Shown: in pieces, positions 2,413-9,010 of the stretch
How the letters are laid out: the number at the start of each line of letters is the position of its first letter
Position numbering within the stretch: the first letter of the stretch is position 1
Source: Halobacteriovoraceae bacterium
Lineage (GTDB): Bacteria > Bdellovibrionota > Bacteriovoracia > Bacteriovoracales > Bacteriovoracaceae
Assembly (NCBI GenBank): GCA_018663815.1
Contig: JABJPQ010000301.1
Location: 1-11,305, forward strand
Length of the DNA stretch: 11,305 nucleotides
Reading direction: 5' to 3'
Notes under the pieces: generated by a model
What the model saw: only the letters and a program-made list of their open reading frames with translations
What the model was told of the DNA's origin: nothing
Database searches by the model: none
Position numbers and translations under genes: made by a program

Positions 2413-3315
2413 ATGACAAAATTTTTAATGACAAGTATTTTAACTGTAATTACTTTCACAAGTAATGTTCAAGCAGAAAAAAGGGTAATACGTACAACAA
2501 GGGTAATTAATCATAACCCTGTTCAAACAATTATCAATCACACAGGACCAACTGTAATTCGGAACAGACATAATCGTGTCGATCGTACAAGGCCAAGAGT
2601 TATTGTGAACCGTACAAGACCAAGAGTGGTTATAAATCCTGCAGGACCAAGATATAATAATGTTGAGCTTTATCATGATGATGGTAGATGCAAAAGTAGA
2701 AATTATATCCAATCTATAGGACCAAGAACAAGCTGTAATACTTTGTATGGCCGTAAGAATGTATGGGGAATAAAAGTTAATGGAGTTTGCGAAAACATCA
2801 CAGATGTTGATGCCGTTAGCGCATGTGAAATGTATAAATATTCACATATTCCAGTCAACAGAGTTTCAACTGTTCAACTCTATCACGATGACGGAAGCTG
2901 CAGAGCTAGTAAGTTAATTGCTAACGTTGATCGCTATACAAATTGTAATGAAATGAGACATCATGAAAGAGTTTGGGGTGTAAGAGTAAATGGTGTGTGC
3001 CAAGATATTACTGACATGGACGCCGATCGTGCCTGTGAAGCTTATAAGCCAGTAAGTACTGTTCGAGTACCTAGGCATGTTCCGACAACAAGACCAACAA
3101 CTACACCTGTTACTCCTGTAAGGTTGTATAAAGATGATGGACAGTGTCGATCAGATAAATTTGTTGGTAAGGTAACTCAACAAACTGTATGTGCTGAAAT
3201 GTATAGTCGTTCTCAAAGAGTTTGGGGTGTAAGAGTAAACGGTCAGTGTATGGATATTACAGATACTGATGCAGTAAGTGCTTGTAGAGATTATAAATGG
3301 CAGGCTGGACGATAG
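2413..3315 (+). CDS. Secreted protein with three four-cysteine modules
   Basis: This gene encodes 300 aa of no family I recognise. Residues 1-21 are a signal peptide (VQA cleavage). Residues 22-80 are strongly basic, with repeated Arg/Asn/Pro units including two adjacent copies of RTRPRVxxN (58-75). Three modules follow at 84-142, 154-212 and 236-295. The shared pattern is VxLYxDDGxC-x14-C-x17/18-C-x11-C, with VWGxxVNGxC, ITDxDA and ACxxYK conserved. The twelve cysteines are 93/108/126/138, 163/178/196/208 and 245/260/279/291, an even and regular set that suggests two disulfides per module in an oxidising compartment. A Thr/Pro-rich linker (213-235) precedes module 3. I infer a modular binding or surface protein. 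The basic N-terminal part could contact anionic polymers such as cell-wall or nucleic-acid polymers. A terminator follows at once, so it is probably transcribed alone. The ATG is chosen by AGGGG and the signal peptide. Confidence 0.75.
   Translation: MTKFLMTSILTVITFTSNVQAEKRVIRTTRVINHNPVQTIINHTGPTVIRNRHNRVDRTRPRVIVNRTRPRVVINPAGPRYNNVELYHDDGRCKSRNYIQSIGPRTSCNTLYGRKNVWGIKVNGVCENITDVDAVSACEMYKYSHIPVNRVSTVQLYHDDGSCRASKLIANVDRYTNCNEMRHHERVWGVRVNGVCQDITDMDADRACEAYKPVSTVRVPRHVPTTRPTTTPVTPVRLYKDDGQCRSDKFVGKVTQQTVCAEMYSRSQRVWGVRVNGQCMDITDTDAVSACRDYKWQAGR
2584..2637 (+). repeat. 27-bp tandem repeat, two copies, in frame
   Basis: 2584-2610 and 2611-2637 are nearly identical in-frame units, both starting CGTACAAG. 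Each encodes Arg-Thr-Arg-Pro-Arg-Val, two aliphatic residues and Asn. They form the basic N-terminal region of the four-Cys module protein and suggest growth by slippage or unequal crossing over. Confidence 0.8.
2662..3297 (+). repeat. Three direct repeats encoding four-Cys modules
   Basis: The units are 2662-2838, 2872-3048 and 3118-3297. At protein level they share Cys spacing and the motifs DDGxC, VWGxxVNGxC and ITDxDA. At DNA level units 2 and 3 share an exact 25-base identity (2966-2990 and 3215-3239, starting AAAGAGTTTGGGG), while unit 1 has diverged there. This suggests that units 2 and 3 split more recently or have been homogenised by gene conversion. Confidence 0.85.
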
Positions 3316-3333
3316 ATATTAAGTATTAAAACA

Positions 3334-3370
3334 AAGCCTAGGTTGGTTTTTAGCTGAGCTAGGCTTGTTT
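3334..3370 (+). terminator. Rho-independent terminator after the four-Cys gene
   Basis: AAGCCTAG (3334-3341) pairs perfectly with CTAGGCTT (3359-3366). After one mismatch the stem can extend inward with several weaker pairs. It is followed by GTTT. The terminator lies 18 bp after the TAG of the secreted four-Cys protein. The T-run is short, so strength may be moderate. Confidence 0.65.
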
Positions 3371-3484
3371 ACTATATAAATAATGCTGTACTGGAACTGT
3401 ACGATAAGACTTTAAAATTATTTCAAAACCTACCGAAAAGACAATGTGATAAAATATTTATATTCAATTATATTACTAGTCGTC

Positions 3485-3533
3485 TGTCCAGCGACAATTA
3501 CTTTTACCCACCAATGACAGTTATAAATACCCA
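3485..3533 (+). repeat. Left end of the IS21 element with two transposase-site repeats
   Basis: Two direct copies of an 18-bp motif, GACA-N10-TACCCA, lie at 3493-3510 and 3516-3533, with starts 23 bp apart. The outer tip TGTCCAGC is at 3485-3492. IS21-family ends are known to hold multiple repeated transposase-binding sites, and this layout fits. It matches the right end in inverted orientation. The inner copies are the closest pair: GACAGTTATAAATACCCA versus GACACTTATAAATACCCA, one mismatch in 18. Confidence 0.85.
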
Positions 3534-3730
3534 CAAAAATCATAAAACTCATGGTGTTACCTAGAAATGGACTCAAGTAATATTTTCAAAAGCTAAACAC
3601 AATTAAGGCCATTTTCGAGAAAGAACCCCATTTCTCAAGATTTTCTACAAGATGTTCGAGTTGCCCACTTATCCTATCCTTTTGGTCTGCCATACTCGAT
3701 AGTTGTTTCGGCAGCTTCTATCCAGTGAAT

Positions 3731-3744
3731 TTCTTAATTAAGAA
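3731..3744. promoter_or_regulatory. 14-bp palindrome upstream of the passenger gene
   Basis: TTCTTAATTAAGAA is a perfect palindrome 38 bp before the ATG at 3783. A weak promoter, TTGTTT (3703-3708) and TGAATT (3726-3731) with a 17-bp spacer, would put the palindrome at the start of transcription, where an operator could sit. AT-rich composition makes a chance palindrome plausible. Confidence 0.25.
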
Positions 3745-3782
3745 GTTAGAAAGCTTCAGTCCAAATAGACGATAAGGTAACT

Positions 3783-4562
3783 ATGAGAAAAACTGCCTAT
3801 TTTTATTTATCTGTATTGCTTTTAATCATTAATTTGGATTGCATTGCTTCTACCAATAAAAAAGAGGTTATTTTTTCTGATATTACTAGTATTCAAGTTG
3901 GCAACCCTTGGAACAATGAAACCCAATCAAAAATGTACAATATCAACTCAGACGATAAGCTGCCGGAGGTTATAACTACAATCTTGTTTGAGACACCTGT
4001 GTCAATAATTGAATTAGGAGTAGAAAAGTTAACCTCTGACTTTTCATACAGGGCAAAGCTTATTGCTGCCCATTGCAAGTCAAAAAATAGCGATACATGG
4101 GCACAAGTATCCTGTGTTAGTCATAGTGTGAACAAAACTTTTAAGCAGTATAAGTGGGGTGACTATACAAGTTTCTGTAGAGCACACGCACAAGCTTTCA
4201 AACAAGCATTTGAAAACCTCAATATACCAAGTAGTCTTGTATCCAAAGATCAAATTAAGACGAGTTCAGGTTTTGCCCATGTCTTTAATAGACTGATTAT
4301 TGCCTCAGAAGATGGACGCTATTTTTCATTTATTATAGATGTAAGCTGGAAGCCTGGTACTATTTTTCCTGATGCTTTAATCACTAATCAATATTTTGAT
4401 ATTAATAATGATGGTGTTACCGATCACTTTGATTTACCTAAAATGAATTCTCCTCCAGTTTTTTCTTTTCAAGAAACTTGTAAGCCATCAAGCGAAGATG
4501 GAGTTGCCCAAAGACTTATAGCCTCAATGCGGAAAATCTTATTGAATCTTATGAGTCGGTAG
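3783..4562 (+). CDS. Secreted transglutaminase-like protein, passenger gene inside the IS21 element
   Basis: This gene encodes 259 aa. The ATG follows TAAGG (3773-3777) with about 5-nt spacing. Residues 1 to about 23 are a signal peptide ending near CIAS/TNKK. The middle resembles the transglutaminase-like Cys-His-Asp fold. C132 begins the helix in FCRAHAQAFKQAFENLNI, H166 lies in FAHVFNRLII, and D186 lies in FIIDVSW after DGRYF, the usual order and surroundings of that triad. A calcium-loop-like DxNxDGxxD occurs at 206-214. Members of this superfamily are proteases, peptide N-glycanases or crosslinkers. The target here is unknown and is probably extracytoplasmic. The gene lies between istB and the element's left end, pointing against istB, with only 8 bp between the two stop codons. 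The family call rests on motif reading, and a different alpha/beta protein with a chance triad is possible. Confidence 0.6.
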   Translation: MRKTAYFYLSVLLLIINLDCIASTNKKEVIFSDITSIQVGNPWNNETQSKMYNINSDDKLPEVITTILFETPVSIIELGVEKLTSDFSYRAKLIAAHCKSKNSDTWAQVSCVSHSVNKTFKQYKWGDYTSFCRAHAQAFKQAFENLNIPSSLVSKDQIKTSSGFAHVFNRLIIASEDGRYFSFIIDVSWKPGTIFPDALITNQYFDINNDGVTDHFDLPKMNSPPVFSFQETCKPSSEDGVAQRLIASMRKILLNLMSR

Positions 4563-4570
4563 TGCAAGAA

Positions 4571-5257
4571 TCAACATGATATAATCCCCCAAAAAACAAC
4601 CTCATTTAATGCTATCGAATTGGCCTCTTCGAATACAAATAACGATGGAGACACAAGATTACTAGAAATCATTATACTCTTTCTTTCGTACCTGTCTGCA
4701 AGAAGAGTGAATAGAACTTCCATTTCATCTCGGCTCTGTTGAACGTAGCCAATATCATCAAGAATGATAACGTCAAACTTGTCTAGCTTCTTTAGGGCAT
4801 TCTCAAGCTCATATTCCTTCTTTGCAACGAGAAGTTTTTCAACGATCTTGAATGTCGGTGTAAAATAAACACTGATATTATATCTAAGTATAAGCTCACG
4901 TCCTAGAGCACCGAGTAGATGACTCTTACCTCTACCTGGAAGACCGAATGCTAAAACATTACTTCCGTCTTCCACAAACTCCCCCTTAAGTAGAGAGTTA
5001 AAGTCCTTTCTAACTTTTTGAGAGAGAAGTTTTTGATCTAACATCTCAAAGGTATACTGAGCTGGAATCTTCGCCTGCTTGATGAGGCGAGCAGTCTTCA
5101 GTTCTTTTCTGTAGTCAAGTTCACATACTCCAAGCTCTTTTAGAAACTTCTCGTAGCTCCAACTTCCACGTTCAGCTTTCTTTTCCATTGCTTCAAAATT
5201 TGAAGAAAAGGTTGGTAGTTTTAATTCTTTTAATAGGTCATTGGTAGCTGTTTTCAT
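4571..5257 (-). CDS. istB: IS21 IstB helper ATPase with replaced or truncated C-terminus
   Basis: This gene encodes 228 aa. The ATG at 5257 follows AGGAGA (5271-5266) with 8-nt spacing and lies 32 bp after the istA stop. IstB is the AAA+ ATPase, related to DnaC, that forms complexes on target DNA and recruits and activates IstA. The N-terminal domain runs from about 1 to 95. Walker A is GLPGRGKS (105-112). Walker B is VIILDDIG (163-170), with D167 and D168. Then comes the very typical SRDEMEVLFTLLADRYERKS (175-194) and sensor-1 SN (199-200). After V202 the normal ending (W..IF...AAxIDRLxHH and on, to about 245-260 aa) is absent and is replaced by about 26 unrelated residues. No frame in the next 100 bases restores it. 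The helper is probably impaired. Confidence 0.9.
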   Translation of the reverse strand: MKTATNDLLKELKLPTFSSNFEAMEKKAERGSWSYEKFLKELGVCELDYRKELKTARLIKQAKIPAQYTFEMLDQKLLSQKVRKDFNSLLKGEFVEDGSNVLAFGLPGRGKSHLLGALGRELILRYNISVYFTPTFKIVEKLLVAKKEYELENALKKLDKFDVIILDDIGYVQQSRDEMEVLFTLLADRYERKSIMISSNLVSPSLFVFEEANSIALNEVVFWGIISC

Positions 5258-5289
5258 TAGAATTTTCTCCTGTGTTTAAAAATAGATCA

Positions 5290-6747
5290 TCATATATTTA
5301 GATTTGGAACTAACTTGATGCTGTCAGAGACAGACTCCTTATTCATAAGGACAAGTTCAGAGATCGAGATACTGTCTAGCTTTAATGACTTATCAGACAA
5401 GATTAACTCTATCGCAACGTCCACATCATCTTCATAGTTATCCGCTGCAAGCTTCAAAACTCTCAGGTACTCAAGAGTTGCTTGCCTTTGGGAGCTTGCT
5501 TCACTTAAATGATCAAATGCCTTTTTAAAGTTCTCTGTGGGATATAGTTCTTCTCGGAATTTATAGCTCTCAAATGCTGCTGGTTTCTTAATAAGTGAAT
5601 GAATAATGTGTCGATAATTAATCACAACACCACGATCTCCAAGAACTCTTTCCATTGAGTACACAAGGTCTGCTCCGGCATACAAATCAATTTTGTATTC
5701 ATAGATTCTTGCCTTAAACTTATTTCCTATAAGTCTTGATAGGACTGAGTAAGTAATCTTCTTTATATTTGCCGTACTGCGATTTCTGACAGTAATATAC
5801 TCTTCTTGATACTCAGGAAGTGGCCTTGTCGGTATGGTATTTAGAAGCGCAAGCTCTTCATCAAACTTCTTTTGTCTCTTAGAGTTTGCCTTATCAATAA
5901 CTTTCCTTAGAAAATATTCATAGTCATCTATACTTTTAAAGTTTTTACTACCTCTAATAATCAGTGCCTGCTTAATCTTATTCTTTAGATGGCCATTTTG
6001 GGATTCAACGACACCATTTTCATTTGGACAACCAACATTAGTCTTCTGTGCTTTGATTCCGTAGTAATCTAGAATTTGAAGATATTCGTCATTAAATACT
6101 CTTTCTTTTTTATCCTTAACAGGTCTGTGTGTGGCCGCAGAGCTATTGTCTACCTGAAGGATGAGTGGAGCTTTACCAACAACTCGATATAGAAACTCAC
6201 GGAGTCCCTTCTTTATTGAGAGAATAGATTCAGACCTACAGATACTTACTGATTCAACATTTGAATGGTTGAGAGTGAAGTGAGAAAGCTTGTGCTCAAA
6301 GTGCTCGCCATTGATTTCAATACCAATCTTATTCATAACAACCCAATCAAGTTGAGCTAACTTTCCTGGAGTCGTGAGCTGGTCAAAATAAACCTCTTGA
6401 TTCTCTCCATGCTTGATTCTCCACTGCTTAATTCTTCTTTGGAAGGTTCTCAGTTGGTTTTCTTCAATGTCGTTAGGATAGGTTTCTAGGAGGTGCTCAA
6501 ATAAGGCTTTGCCCTCAATATCTGAGTTTTCTTGAAGAAACTCTTCAGCCTTAGACCAGATAGCTCCAAGTTTATCAGGATGAGTTTTCCAATTGCGATC
6601 TTTAACAATTTCACTTGGTAATATTTTAGAGTTAATATATTTAGCAGCAGTTTTCCTGTCCATCCCGACCCTCAACGCACTAATATTAACTACCTTCGAT
6701 TTATTGAACTCTTTCCAAAGAGCAAGAACTTGATGATCAGTAACCAC
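5290..6747 (-). CDS. istA: IS21 IstA transposase (DDE)
   Basis: IstA binds the terminal repeats and carries out DNA cleavage and strand transfer. The chosen start is GTG at 6747. A near-perfect Shine-Dalgarno, AGGAGGTG (6761-6754), lies 8 nt upstream, whereas the GTG at 6756 overlaps it and cannot use it. The result is 485 aa, a normal family length. In this numbering an N-terminal helix-turn-helix lies at about 18-42 (NISALRVGMDRKTAAKYI). The catalytic DDE is D134 (QLDW), D200 (LQVDNSSAATH) and E248 (NENGVVESQNGH), with a D-E gap of 47 residues. A C-terminal beta-rich region (about 310-380) and a Glu/Asp-rich tail follow. The frame is complete with no stop or shift, so the transposase itself looks intact. 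It is cotranscribed with istB. Confidence 0.93.
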   Translation of the reverse strand: MVTDHQVLALWKEFNKSKVVNISALRVGMDRKTAAKYINSKILPSEIVKDRNWKTHPDKLGAIWSKAEEFLQENSDIEGKALFEHLLETYPNDIEENQLRTFQRRIKQWRIKHGENQEVYFDQLTTPGKLAQLDWVVMNKIGIEINGEHFEHKLSHFTLNHSNVESVSICRSESILSIKKGLREFLYRVVGKAPLILQVDNSSAATHRPVKDKKERVFNDEYLQILDYYGIKAQKTNVGCPNENGVVESQNGHLKNKIKQALIIRGSKNFKSIDDYEYFLRKVIDKANSKRQKKFDEELALLNTIPTRPLPEYQEEYITVRNRSTANIKKITYSVLSRLIGNKFKARIYEYKIDLYAGADLVYSMERVLGDRGVVINYRHIIHSLIKKPAAFESYKFREELYPTENFKKAFDHLSEASSQRQATLEYLRVLKLAADNYEDDVDVAIELILSDKSLKLDSISISELVLMNKESVSDSIKLVPNLNI

Positions 6748-6767
6748 TATTTGCACCTCCTGGGCTT

Positions 6768-6796
6768 TTAATAGTGAACGTATCGGATCAAGTTAA
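6768..6796 (-). promoter_or_regulatory. Promoter of istAB
   Basis: On the minus strand, TTAACT (6796-6791) and TATTAA (6773-6768) are separated by exactly 17 bp, about 20 bp before the istA start. The -35 element abuts the inner transposase site (6797-6814). Bound IstA could therefore block its own promoter, a plausible autorepression, though this is inferred. Confidence 0.45.
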
Positions 6797-6845
6797 TGGG
6801 TATTTATAAGTGTCGTCGGTGGGTAGTTTAAACTGTCGTCAGCCA
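6797..6845 (-). repeat. Right end of the IS21 element with two transposase-site repeats
   Basis: Read on the minus strand, the outer copy GACAGTTTAAACTACCCA is at 6837-6820 and the inner copy GACACTTATAAATACCCA is at 6814-6797. Starts are 23 bp apart, the same period as at the left end. The tip TGGCTGAC occupies 6845-6838. With the left end these form an inverted terminal pair of about 49 bp. Confidence 0.85.
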
Positions 6846-6943
6846 TTTATGCTAGGACAGCATATTTTCGTCTTTATCATGAAAAAGATAAATATGAATT
6901 TGCAGGTACAGAAAATTCCTCACTTGGTAAGAATAAATTTTTT

Positions 6944-9010
6944 TTGAGTATGAATTATAAAGAATTTACAAATATGGCTGAAGACTATCCTCCGATGAAG
7001 GGGCTAGTAAACTATATAAATGAAAATCCAAAGAAGTTAACTTCAACGCTAATAATATTTGATGATGAAAATGATGATTATGTTTTAATGGACTCCTCCT
7101 TAAATTTTGTGGTTACCAAGAGTAGTAAAAAGATTTCTTATAGAGATCTTAATGATAAAAAAGTTAATGAATATATGTCTAAGTATGTGCAAAGTTTAAT
7201 TAACAATATGCCCCAGTCAGATTTGTATCGTTTTGTAAAAAATGATTGTACTGATTCTATACTTGAAACGGAAAAGTTGGAACACAACGATGCTGAATTA
7301 ATTGAATATGTCGACTGGATGAGTACTCACACCTGTACCGAGAAATATAAAGATCAAGATGTTAAAACTTACCAAGCTGATCTTCATGAGAAAGTTTTTC
7401 AAGGGTGTCTAGATTGCATGAAAGGGAATTTTACTGAAAAAAAACTATTTGAAATGTTTTTGAGTATAAGCACTAACGATGAAACAAATTGTTTTGATCT
7501 GTTTAAAAATGATATAATTAAAAAAATTTCTTTTAAGGAAAAGCAAGTATTATTAAAAAACAGTGTCTTGTACGTGGAAAAGTTGCGACCTGAAATAAAA
7601 TATATTCATGAGACCCTTAGTTTTGAAGCAACAGAGTTCTCAGGAAAGGCTCTTGATTATATCCTACACTATCTCGATAGGTTTGGAATACAAGAAGTAC
7701 CAAAAGATATTTTGGGCATAATTTCATTACAAACGAATTCAGTAAGTGATGATTCGAGAAAAGAATTAAATGATCTTTTAGCTTTGAAGCTTTCCCGAAC
7801 TGATCTGTTTGGCTTTGGAGATAACCAAGTTGAAAGAAACGATTTAGCAAAAAAGATGCTAAAGGATTATTTAAAGAAAGCAAAACCGGAGATAAATGAG
7901 ATTGAAGTTTACCAGCTAAACAATGAAGGTGTAAATGAGATAGGTGATGACGGTGTTTTCTTAACCTGTGGTATTCACGACCTTGACATATTTGAAAAGA
8001 AAAATGGAGAAAGAATTTATTTGAGAGGTAATTACGAAGCTGAATTTAAAAATATGGCAAAAGGCTTATTTGTTCCAGCTTCACAAATCATACAACTTAA
8101 ACATAATAAAAGTGAGCTTTACGGAGTGTGTGGAGGTAAAGAATACAAAATAGAATTTCCTCCCAATATATTACTTGATCTGAAGGACTCAATAAATTTA
8201 AGAGATTTAGAAACGTTTAAATTTCAATTTGGAGAGGATAATGTCATTGATGCATTCTCAACCCTAGGGCTTGTAGAAGAGATGTCCTATAAACTAGCGA
8301 CTGGGCTTAAGTTTGCTTTTAGCATGAAAGGGTTTAGGCTCGTAAGTGAAAATGAAATAGATAACTTAAAACAGCGCTTTTTAGATGAATTGAAAGTAAC
8401 TGATATCTATTTTCCCATAAACCATTCGATGTCACTAAATAATTTTACTATCGGTCGTACTAAAGCAATAGAGTTTGTTTTTGAGAAGAAGATAAAACCA
8501 AACAGGACGGTTAGGCTTAAGGTTTATACTCCAAGATATGATAATAACGAGACATCTATGGATGAGATTGCATCTACTCAGGAAATTGAGAACGTATTGT
8601 CCCAGAGAAGTGATGAACATAATAACTTATTTATCTTAAACCTTTCATGTCAGGCGGAAAAAACCATTCCACAATGGATGCATGCATACACAAACGCTGT
8701 AAAGGTCAGTGTTCAAGAAAAAGAAATTCTTGCACCTGTTATCATTTCTTCTAAGAGAGCTTTTGAAACGGGCTCTCCAACACAAATATTAAAGCACATG
8801 GAATACCCCTTCGGTGTTTTAGAGCTTGCAGCAAAAGAAAGCAATATTGAACAAACACTAGACTTTCTTGCTGCAAAACCAGATGCGAAGTTTAAAGCAT
8901 CGAGGTCATTTAGTCCCATTTCAAATATTGGTAAAACCTTTCTTCGTGAGCAACTAAAAAAGATAGATGTAAAAATAACAACAATGGATGGGAAAGTTTC
9001 AAATTTTTAA
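6944..9010 (+). CDS. Large protein of unknown family, probably 5'-truncated by the IS21 element
   Basis: The gene encodes 688 aa from TTG at 6944, or 686 from ATG at 6950. No family or catalytic motif is recognised. No Shine-Dalgarno stands at the right distance: the only weak candidate is GGTAAG at 6926-6931. The frame stays open upstream without any ATG, GTG or other TTG to a TAG at 6824-6826 inside the element, and the 32 codons just outside the element (from 6848) read like protein (FRLYHEKDKYEFAG). The native start was therefore probably lost. Five cysteines cluster at residues 102-183 (C102, C131, the pair C155/C158 in a CxxC, and C183), which hints at a metal site or an extracytoplasmic domain. 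The rest is Lys/Asp/Glu-rich, mixed alpha/beta, with no membrane segment. Codon use is even more AT-rich than in istAB. It could be a decaying gene, or still expressed from a promoter I do not see. Confidence 0.6.
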   Translation: MSMNYKEFTNMAEDYPPMKGLVNYINENPKKLTSTLIIFDDENDDYVLMDSSLNFVVTKSSKKISYRDLNDKKVNEYMSKYVQSLINNMPQSDLYRFVKNDCTDSILETEKLEHNDAELIEYVDWMSTHTCTEKYKDQDVKTYQADLHEKVFQGCLDCMKGNFTEKKLFEMFLSISTNDETNCFDLFKNDIIKKISFKEKQVLLKNSVLYVEKLRPEIKYIHETLSFEATEFSGKALDYILHYLDRFGIQEVPKDILGIISLQTNSVSDDSRKELNDLLALKLSRTDLFGFGDNQVERNDLAKKMLKDYLKKAKPEINEIEVYQLNNEGVNEIGDDGVFLTCGIHDLDIFEKKNGERIYLRGNYEAEFKNMAKGLFVPASQIIQLKHNKSELYGVCGGKEYKIEFPPNILLDLKDSINLRDLETFKFQFGEDNVIDAFSTLGLVEEMSYKLATGLKFAFSMKGFRLVSENEIDNLKQRFLDELKVTDIYFPINHSMSLNNFTIGRTKAIEFVFEKKIKPNRTVRLKVYTPRYDNNETSMDEIASTQEIENVLSQRSDEHNNLFILNLSCQAEKTIPQWMHAYTNAVKVSVQEKEILAPVIISSKRAFETGSPTQILKHMEYPFGVLELAAKESNIEQTLDFLAAKPDAKFKASRSFSPISNIGKTFLREQLKKIDVKITTMDGKVSNF

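What the first reader, a model, noticed from the sequence alone, without database searches (positions are those of the whole stretch)
3485..6845. IS21-family element that carries a secreted transglutaminase-like passenger gene
Matching inverted ends, each with two 18-bp sites at a 23-bp period, enclose istAB plus about 1.1 kb of extra DNA with a complete signal-peptide gene. IS21 elements normally hold only istA and istB. A passenger encoding a putative exported Cys-His-Asp enzyme would be an unusual cargo and could be spread by the element.
Basis: partly seen in the sequence, partly recalled or inferred. Interest (0 to 1): 0.7.

Follow-up and report, generated by a model that had tools for sequence, protein, structure and literature searches.

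The report
Decayed IS21 element enclosing secreted-enzyme gene
A broken jumping gene in a Bacteriovorax-like bacterium now encloses a gene for a probable secreted cysteine enzyme, but relatives and damage at its borders suggest a local rearrangement rather than an element known to carry that gene around.

Summary
IS21-type ends, each with two 18-bp sites (GACA-N8-TACCCA, not N10), lie at 3493-3533 and 6797-6837 and were found nowhere else in the held draft genome. They enclose istA, istB and a complete gene (3783-4562) for a probable exported Cys-His-Asp enzyme. The reading as a gene-spreading element is only partly supported. IstB lost its last ~45 residues where the extra DNA begins, and IstA lost its C-terminal tail by a frameshift. 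Related copies end 30-390 bp after istB (18 of 20 loci). The 8 other fetched loci with passenger relatives have no IstA/IstB within 1.5 kb. The window shows no target duplication, but only about half of the related copies tested show a clear one, so this weighs little. Best reading: a decayed IS21 copy whose istB end was replaced by ~1.1 kb of host-type DNA; it could move only in trans. One relative (G128) has a different gene, for a protein-arginine deiminase, in the same slot, so recurrent cargo capture stays open. The passenger belongs to a small transglutaminase-like family without a matching Pfam model.

The parts
3485..3533 (+). istB-side (R) end of the IS21 element: TG tip and two 18-bp sites GACA-N8-TACCCA
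   Evidence: 22 bp including the tip identical to the R end of the G023 copy
3534..3782 (.). non-IS DNA between the R end and the passenger; no coding-like + frame
   Evidence: sequence; frame scores -0.16 to -0.37
3783..4562 (+). passenger gene, 259 aa, signal-peptide-like N terminus (by eye), Cys132/His166/Asp186; divergent transglutaminase-like family
4563..4655 (.). foreign DNA between the passenger stop and the istB break; frame 0 after the passenger stop is coding-like
4656..5257 (-). istB stub (homologous part of IstB); the last ~45 residues are missing, and the ORF runs on to 4571 through foreign DNA
5290..6756 (-). istA, DDE-type transposase, 488 aa; frameshift removes the C-terminal 18 residues found in the closest relative
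6797..6845 (-). istA-side (L) end of the IS21 element with two 18-bp sites and TG tip
6848..9010 (+). flanking gene; its frame stays open and coding-like to the IS border, first in-frame start at 6944/6950; possibly truncated by a deletion next to the istA-side end

Best explanation
This is a decayed copy of an IS21-family insertion sequence, of a clade found in Bacteriovorax-type bacteria. Local rearrangement put about 1.1 kb of host-type DNA, with a transglutaminase-like gene, between istB and the istB-side end, destroying the end of istB (shown: the break and the loss; inferred: how). A second event, perhaps an IS21-type deletion next to the istA-side end, may have removed a target duplication and the start of the right-hand gene (inferred). 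The order could have arisen by replacement inside one IS copy or by collapse of two same-direction copies flanking the gene; the data do not separate these. Because both ends keep both repeat sites, an intact IstA/IstB supplied in trans could in principle move the whole 3.36-kb unit, but nothing shows that it has moved with this gene. The passenger probably makes an exported cysteine enzyme (protease- or transglutaminase-type chemistry) unrelated to transposition.
For: Ends real and found only here in the held genome. IstB homology stops near residue 202 of 247 where foreign DNA starts. IstA tail lost. R end 30-390 bp after istB in 18 of 20 in-clade loci (17 by motif, which had no shuffled control; L023). 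In one search, 11 of 15 other loci beat their shuffles; L019, L027, L028 and L031 did not. None of 8 other fetched passenger-family loci has IstA/IstB within about 1.5 kb. The frame at 6848-6943 scores 0.246 against a coding median of 0.168, with no ATG/GTG/TTG before 6944; deletions next to the 5' end are described for the IS21-family ISPve1 (PMC9330008, passages). A 12-of-14 direct repeat lies near both junctions (25 of 2000 shuffles reach it; noticed after the fact).
Against: G128 carries a different enzyme gene in the same slot, so the clade may take up cargo more than by accident. The missing target duplication is weak evidence: of 9 cargo-less copies tested, G101, L026, L023 and L035 show 6-9 bp, L032 a doubtful 6 bp, and L018, L025, L029 and L030 no convincing one; G023, split over two contigs, shows none. 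The right-hand gene may simply start at 6944/6950; the codon model was trained partly on that gene, and a second frame at 6848-6943 scores -0.037, above the off-frame 95% point of -0.115. The origin of the 1.1-kb DNA was not found; 'host-type' rests on similar G+C and codon use.
Confidence: 0.6

Rival explanations
1. A genuine cargo-bearing IS21 (a transporter-IS-like element) that transposed here with the passenger as a unit, and decayed afterwards.
For: Passenger lies inside two intact, correctly oriented ends; G128 has another enzyme gene between istB and an R end; a clear target duplication is also missing in about half of the cargo-less copies tested.
Against: istB is broken at the cargo junction, so the unit was probably non-autonomous from the moment the cargo entered; no second copy in the held genome; no IstA/IstB next to the 8 other fetched passenger relatives.
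Confidence: 0.18
2. Assembly chimera: the istB/passenger or passenger/R-end junction is an artefact of a fragmented draft assembly.
For: The genome is a draft in 717 contigs, 80.7% complete; the G023 copy is itself split over two contigs.
Against: The protein search lists the passenger on 3 contigs, the longest 102 kb, though not whether the IS is beside it; G+C is similar across the junctions.
Confidence: 0.1
3. The inserted 1.1 kb is itself a mobile element (MITE or cassette) that landed in the istB 3' end.
For: MITE-like DNA (by eye) sits in the same slot in L102; abrupt junction in istB.
Against: No inverted-repeat pair at the borders of 3534-4655 was reported; no Rfam match in the window; ~45 istB codons are lost, which simple insertion does not do.
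Confidence: 0.1

Closest known systems
IS21 family (IstA transposase + IstB AAA+ helper; ends with L1/L2 and R1/R2 repeats; PMC10122671 and PMC11208146, passages seen)
   Same: transposase and IstB-type helper genes, two repeated sites in each end, TG/CA tips, 6-9 bp target duplications in some relatives
   Different: istB truncated, istA frameshifted, extra 1.1 kb with a gene between istB and the R end, no clear target duplication
Transporter ISs (tIS) as described in PMC9330008 (passages seen)
   Same: a non-transposition gene inside the ends of an IS
   Different: mobility as a unit not shown; damaged transposition genes; one copy in the held genome
IS21-558 with cfr (PMC4862533, passages seen)
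   Same: IS21-type element physically tied to an accessory gene
   Different: there an IS21-558 lies upstream of cfr; a role in mobility is stated in the title of a paper it cites, which I did not see
Transglutaminase-like cysteine protease superfamily (PMC4866520, passages seen)
   Same: Cys-His-Asp order (C132, H166, D186); weak top fold match to Streptococcus pyogenes TglA (E 0.07)
   Different: no Pfam or NCBIfam match above cut-off and no believable PDB sequence match; fold model of low confidence

Membership tests
IS21 family | IstA-type DDE transposase | tested here: met
   NF033546 E 1.4e-43, 149.5 bits (curated cut-off 160, so just below); 92% identity to P0002; a 28-row alignment of relatives keeps D137, D203 and E251 (that these three are the DDE triad is recalled)
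IS21 family | IstB AAA+ helper, complete | tested here: not met
   Pfam IstB_IS21 matches positions 3-194 of 238; last ~45 residues missing
IS21 family | multiple terminal repeats in both ends | tested here: met
   two 18-bp sites per end, only two hits in the held genome
IS21 family | short target duplication (4-8 bp, recalled) | tested here: not met
   none in window; clear in 4 of 9 cargo-less copies tested, doubtful in 1, not convincing in 4 (with L023)
Transporter IS (tIS) | non-transposition gene between the ends | tested here: met
   3783-4562
Transporter IS (tIS) | gene moves with the element (several copies, or target duplication around the unit) | tested here: inconclusive
   one copy in the held, 80.7% complete genome; no duplication, which related copies often lack too
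Transglutaminase-like superfamily | conserved Cys-His-Asp in order | tested here: met
   C132, H166, D186 invariant in 10 sequences; that they are catalytic is inferred
Transglutaminase-like superfamily | transglutaminase-like fold | tested here: inconclusive
   single-sequence model, pLDDT 44, helix then three strands around the three residues; best PDB match TglA, E 0.07, none at E <= 0.001; the model with relatives did not finish

The most novel reading that the evidence does not exclude
An IS21 clade of Bacteriovorax-type bacteria repeatedly captures genes for exported enzymes (transglutaminase-like here, protein-arginine deiminase in G128) between istB and the R end, acting as a small cargo transposon for exported, perhaps predation-related, enzymes. 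That would bridge two-gene IS21 elements and cargo-bearing Tn7/Tn402-type transposons.
Probability: 0.12. Interest if true: 0.6.

Novelty: new variant of a known kind. Interest (0 to 1): 0.35.

Why it matters
If IS21 elements in such bacteria pick up exported-enzyme genes, they would be an overlooked route by which these genes spread, and a possible intermediate between plain IS and cargo transposons. As it stands, the case mainly shows how a gene can become enclosed by IS ends through rearrangement. It also exposes a small, probably exported Cys-His-Asp protein family that matched no Pfam model above cut-off.

Tried and rejected
Passenger as inherent part of this IS: rejected, since G023 and G101 copies lack it. 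Passenger as core gene at this site in relatives: matches in 2 of 98 genomes, the window's own and a weak one in G078, none in the 3 same-genus genomes. The G023 contig with the homolog of gene 449-2323 matches no other window gene, so no empty site could be read. Sequence shared by the DNA around the window cargo and around the G128 cargo: none above shuffles. RNA families: none at gathering scores. Promoter and terminator patterns: no excess over shuffles worth using. Plasmids: no passenger; 969 records with IstA relatives, all under 60% identity. Extra ~1.1 kb in L102 (G354): no convincing gene, a MITE-like inverted repeat seen by eye. First genome-contig scan with the single IstA found no relative. 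L end for the G128 element: not found on the fetched stretches; istA is 5'-truncated. One PDB profile hit, a designed helical repeat protein (E 1.2e-5, best stretch 32 profile positions), was judged spurious. Literature: searches; from the listings no title describes an IS21 unit with a gene inside its ends. Only passages of five IS papers and one on transglutaminase-like proteins were seen, so no claim of absence in print is made.

Full report
What is there. The window is contig C700 of a draft genome (717 contigs, 80.7% complete). Two genomes of its family, G101 and G023, have contigs that match by length and coordinates the named records of a Bacteriovorax and a Halobacteriovoraceae bacterium, hence 'Bacteriovorax-type' (inference). 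The ends are real: arms 3492-3533 and 6797-6838, each with two GACA-N8-TACCCA sites at a 23-bp period. A scan of the held genome for the two-site pattern with up to 3 mismatches gives two matches, both perfect and both here, and none for the reversed control. Multiple, usually at least two, repeats per end are reported for IS21 (PMC10122671, passages).

Transposition genes. IstA (5290-6756, minus) has its closest listed relative at 92% identity but ends 18 residues earlier, by a frameshift; part of that tail is nearly invariant in 28 aligned sequences. IstB aligns to position 194 of 238 in Pfam and to residue 202 of 247 of the G023 IstB; after ISSNLV the DNA is foreign. The extra DNA thus begins inside istB, and the element is probably not autonomous.

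The passenger. With the 259-aa protein (3783-4562) as query, the only hit in 5.8 billion proteins was itself. A profile of it and the G078 protein found those two and three more. A five-sequence profile found the family in 8 of 368 genomes of the phylum, the window's own included. Ten sequences, the passenger among them and several close to each other, share W43, C98, C111, C132, H166, G178, D186 and P196. No Pfam or NCBIfam model was met above its cut-off. A single-sequence fold has low confidence (pLDDT 44); its top PDB match, TglA, has E 0.07. Cys-His-Asp/Glu is the usual triad of transglutaminase-like enzymes (PMC4866520, passages). 'Exported cysteine enzyme' is inference.

Other copies of this clade. 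From 26 genome-contig loci, one viral locus and G128, 20 loci had istB and DNA beyond it; 8 of the 26 were left out because istB was missing or cut. The R end lies 30-390 bp after istB in 18 of 20 (17 by motif, without shuffled control; L023). L028 is unresolved; G128 has it 2.17 kb away. By inverted repeats, 11 of 15 other loci beat their shuffles and L019, L027, L028 and L031 did not.

Other IS21 copies of the phylum. One search listed 81 IstB matches; 45 of them were tested from 49 fetched stretches. Six had too little flank; of 39, 20 gave a clear inverted-repeat pair and 19 did not. In 19 of the 20 the end starts 49-185 bp after the IstB match; L102 has 1.1 kb without a convincing gene and with a MITE-like repeat. 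A cargo copy among the 19 unresolved ones cannot be excluded.

G128. istB is complete at its 3' end but frameshifted inside, istA is 5'-truncated, and a 561-aa protein with a Pfam PAD match (E 2.2e-7) at L013 4913-6598 lies between istB and an R end with three sites. No L end was found on the fetched stretches. PAD relatives occur in 25 of 129 family genomes, G128 included; 11 of the 27 other places were fetched and none has IstA/IstB nearby. Enclosed genes in 2 of 4 in-clade copies of this family against 0 of 36 other resolved copies gives Fisher p = 0.008. But the window was chosen for its cargo, and some copies share genomes; without the window, 1 of 3 against 0 of 36 gives p = 0.08. This is suggestive only.

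Border scars. No exact repeat of 5 bp or more lies near the two borders of the window element (longest shared word 4 bp). Of 9 cargo-less copies, G101 (7 bp), L026 (9 bp), L023 (7-8 bp) and L035 (6 bp) show a duplication, L032 a doubtful 6 bp, and L018, L025, L029 and L030 none that stands out from shuffles; G023, on two contigs, shows none. The lack here is therefore weak evidence. The frame of the right-hand gene is coding-like from 6848, with the first in-frame start at 6944, which would fit a deletion next to the istA-side end; the gene could also simply start at 6944/6950. Such deletions are reported for the IS21-family ISPve1, and IS21 forms tandem dimers that rearrange DNA (PMC9330008, passages). 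A 12-of-14 direct repeat (3537-3550, 4666-4679) lies near both junctions (25 of 2000 shuffles reach it).

Verdict. An IS21 element with a non-transposition gene between its ends is real and unusual, but the evidence favours rearrangement over a dedicated carrier. Mobility in trans is possible, not shown. The G128 parallel keeps a more novel reading alive at about 0.12.

Noticed in passing
L013 (G128:C1) 4913-6598: A protein-arginine deiminase-like gene with a signal-peptide-like start (by eye) between a decayed IS21 istB and an R end with three sites; a second, different enclosed gene in the same IS clade.
   Followed up: partly
window 3783-4562 and L158, L159, L161-L165: Small, divergent, probably exported Cys-His-Asp family spread thinly through the phylum (8 of 368 genomes) with no Pfam model met above cut-off.
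   Followed up: partly
window 2413-3315: Secreted-looking protein (by eye) whose gene has three copies of an ~82-nt repeat coding a module with conserved cysteines.
   Followed up: no
window 4563-4655: Coding-like frame directly after the passenger stop, ending at the istB junction; possibly the remnant of a longer or following gene.
   Followed up: partly
L012 (G101:C142): Complete cargo-less copy of this IS21 type with a 7-bp target duplication, inserted between genes that look like an IS66-type element (by eye).
   Followed up: partly
L102 (G354:C221) 3280-3830: MITE-like inverted repeat (by eye) between istB and the R end of another IS21 copy.
   Followed up: no
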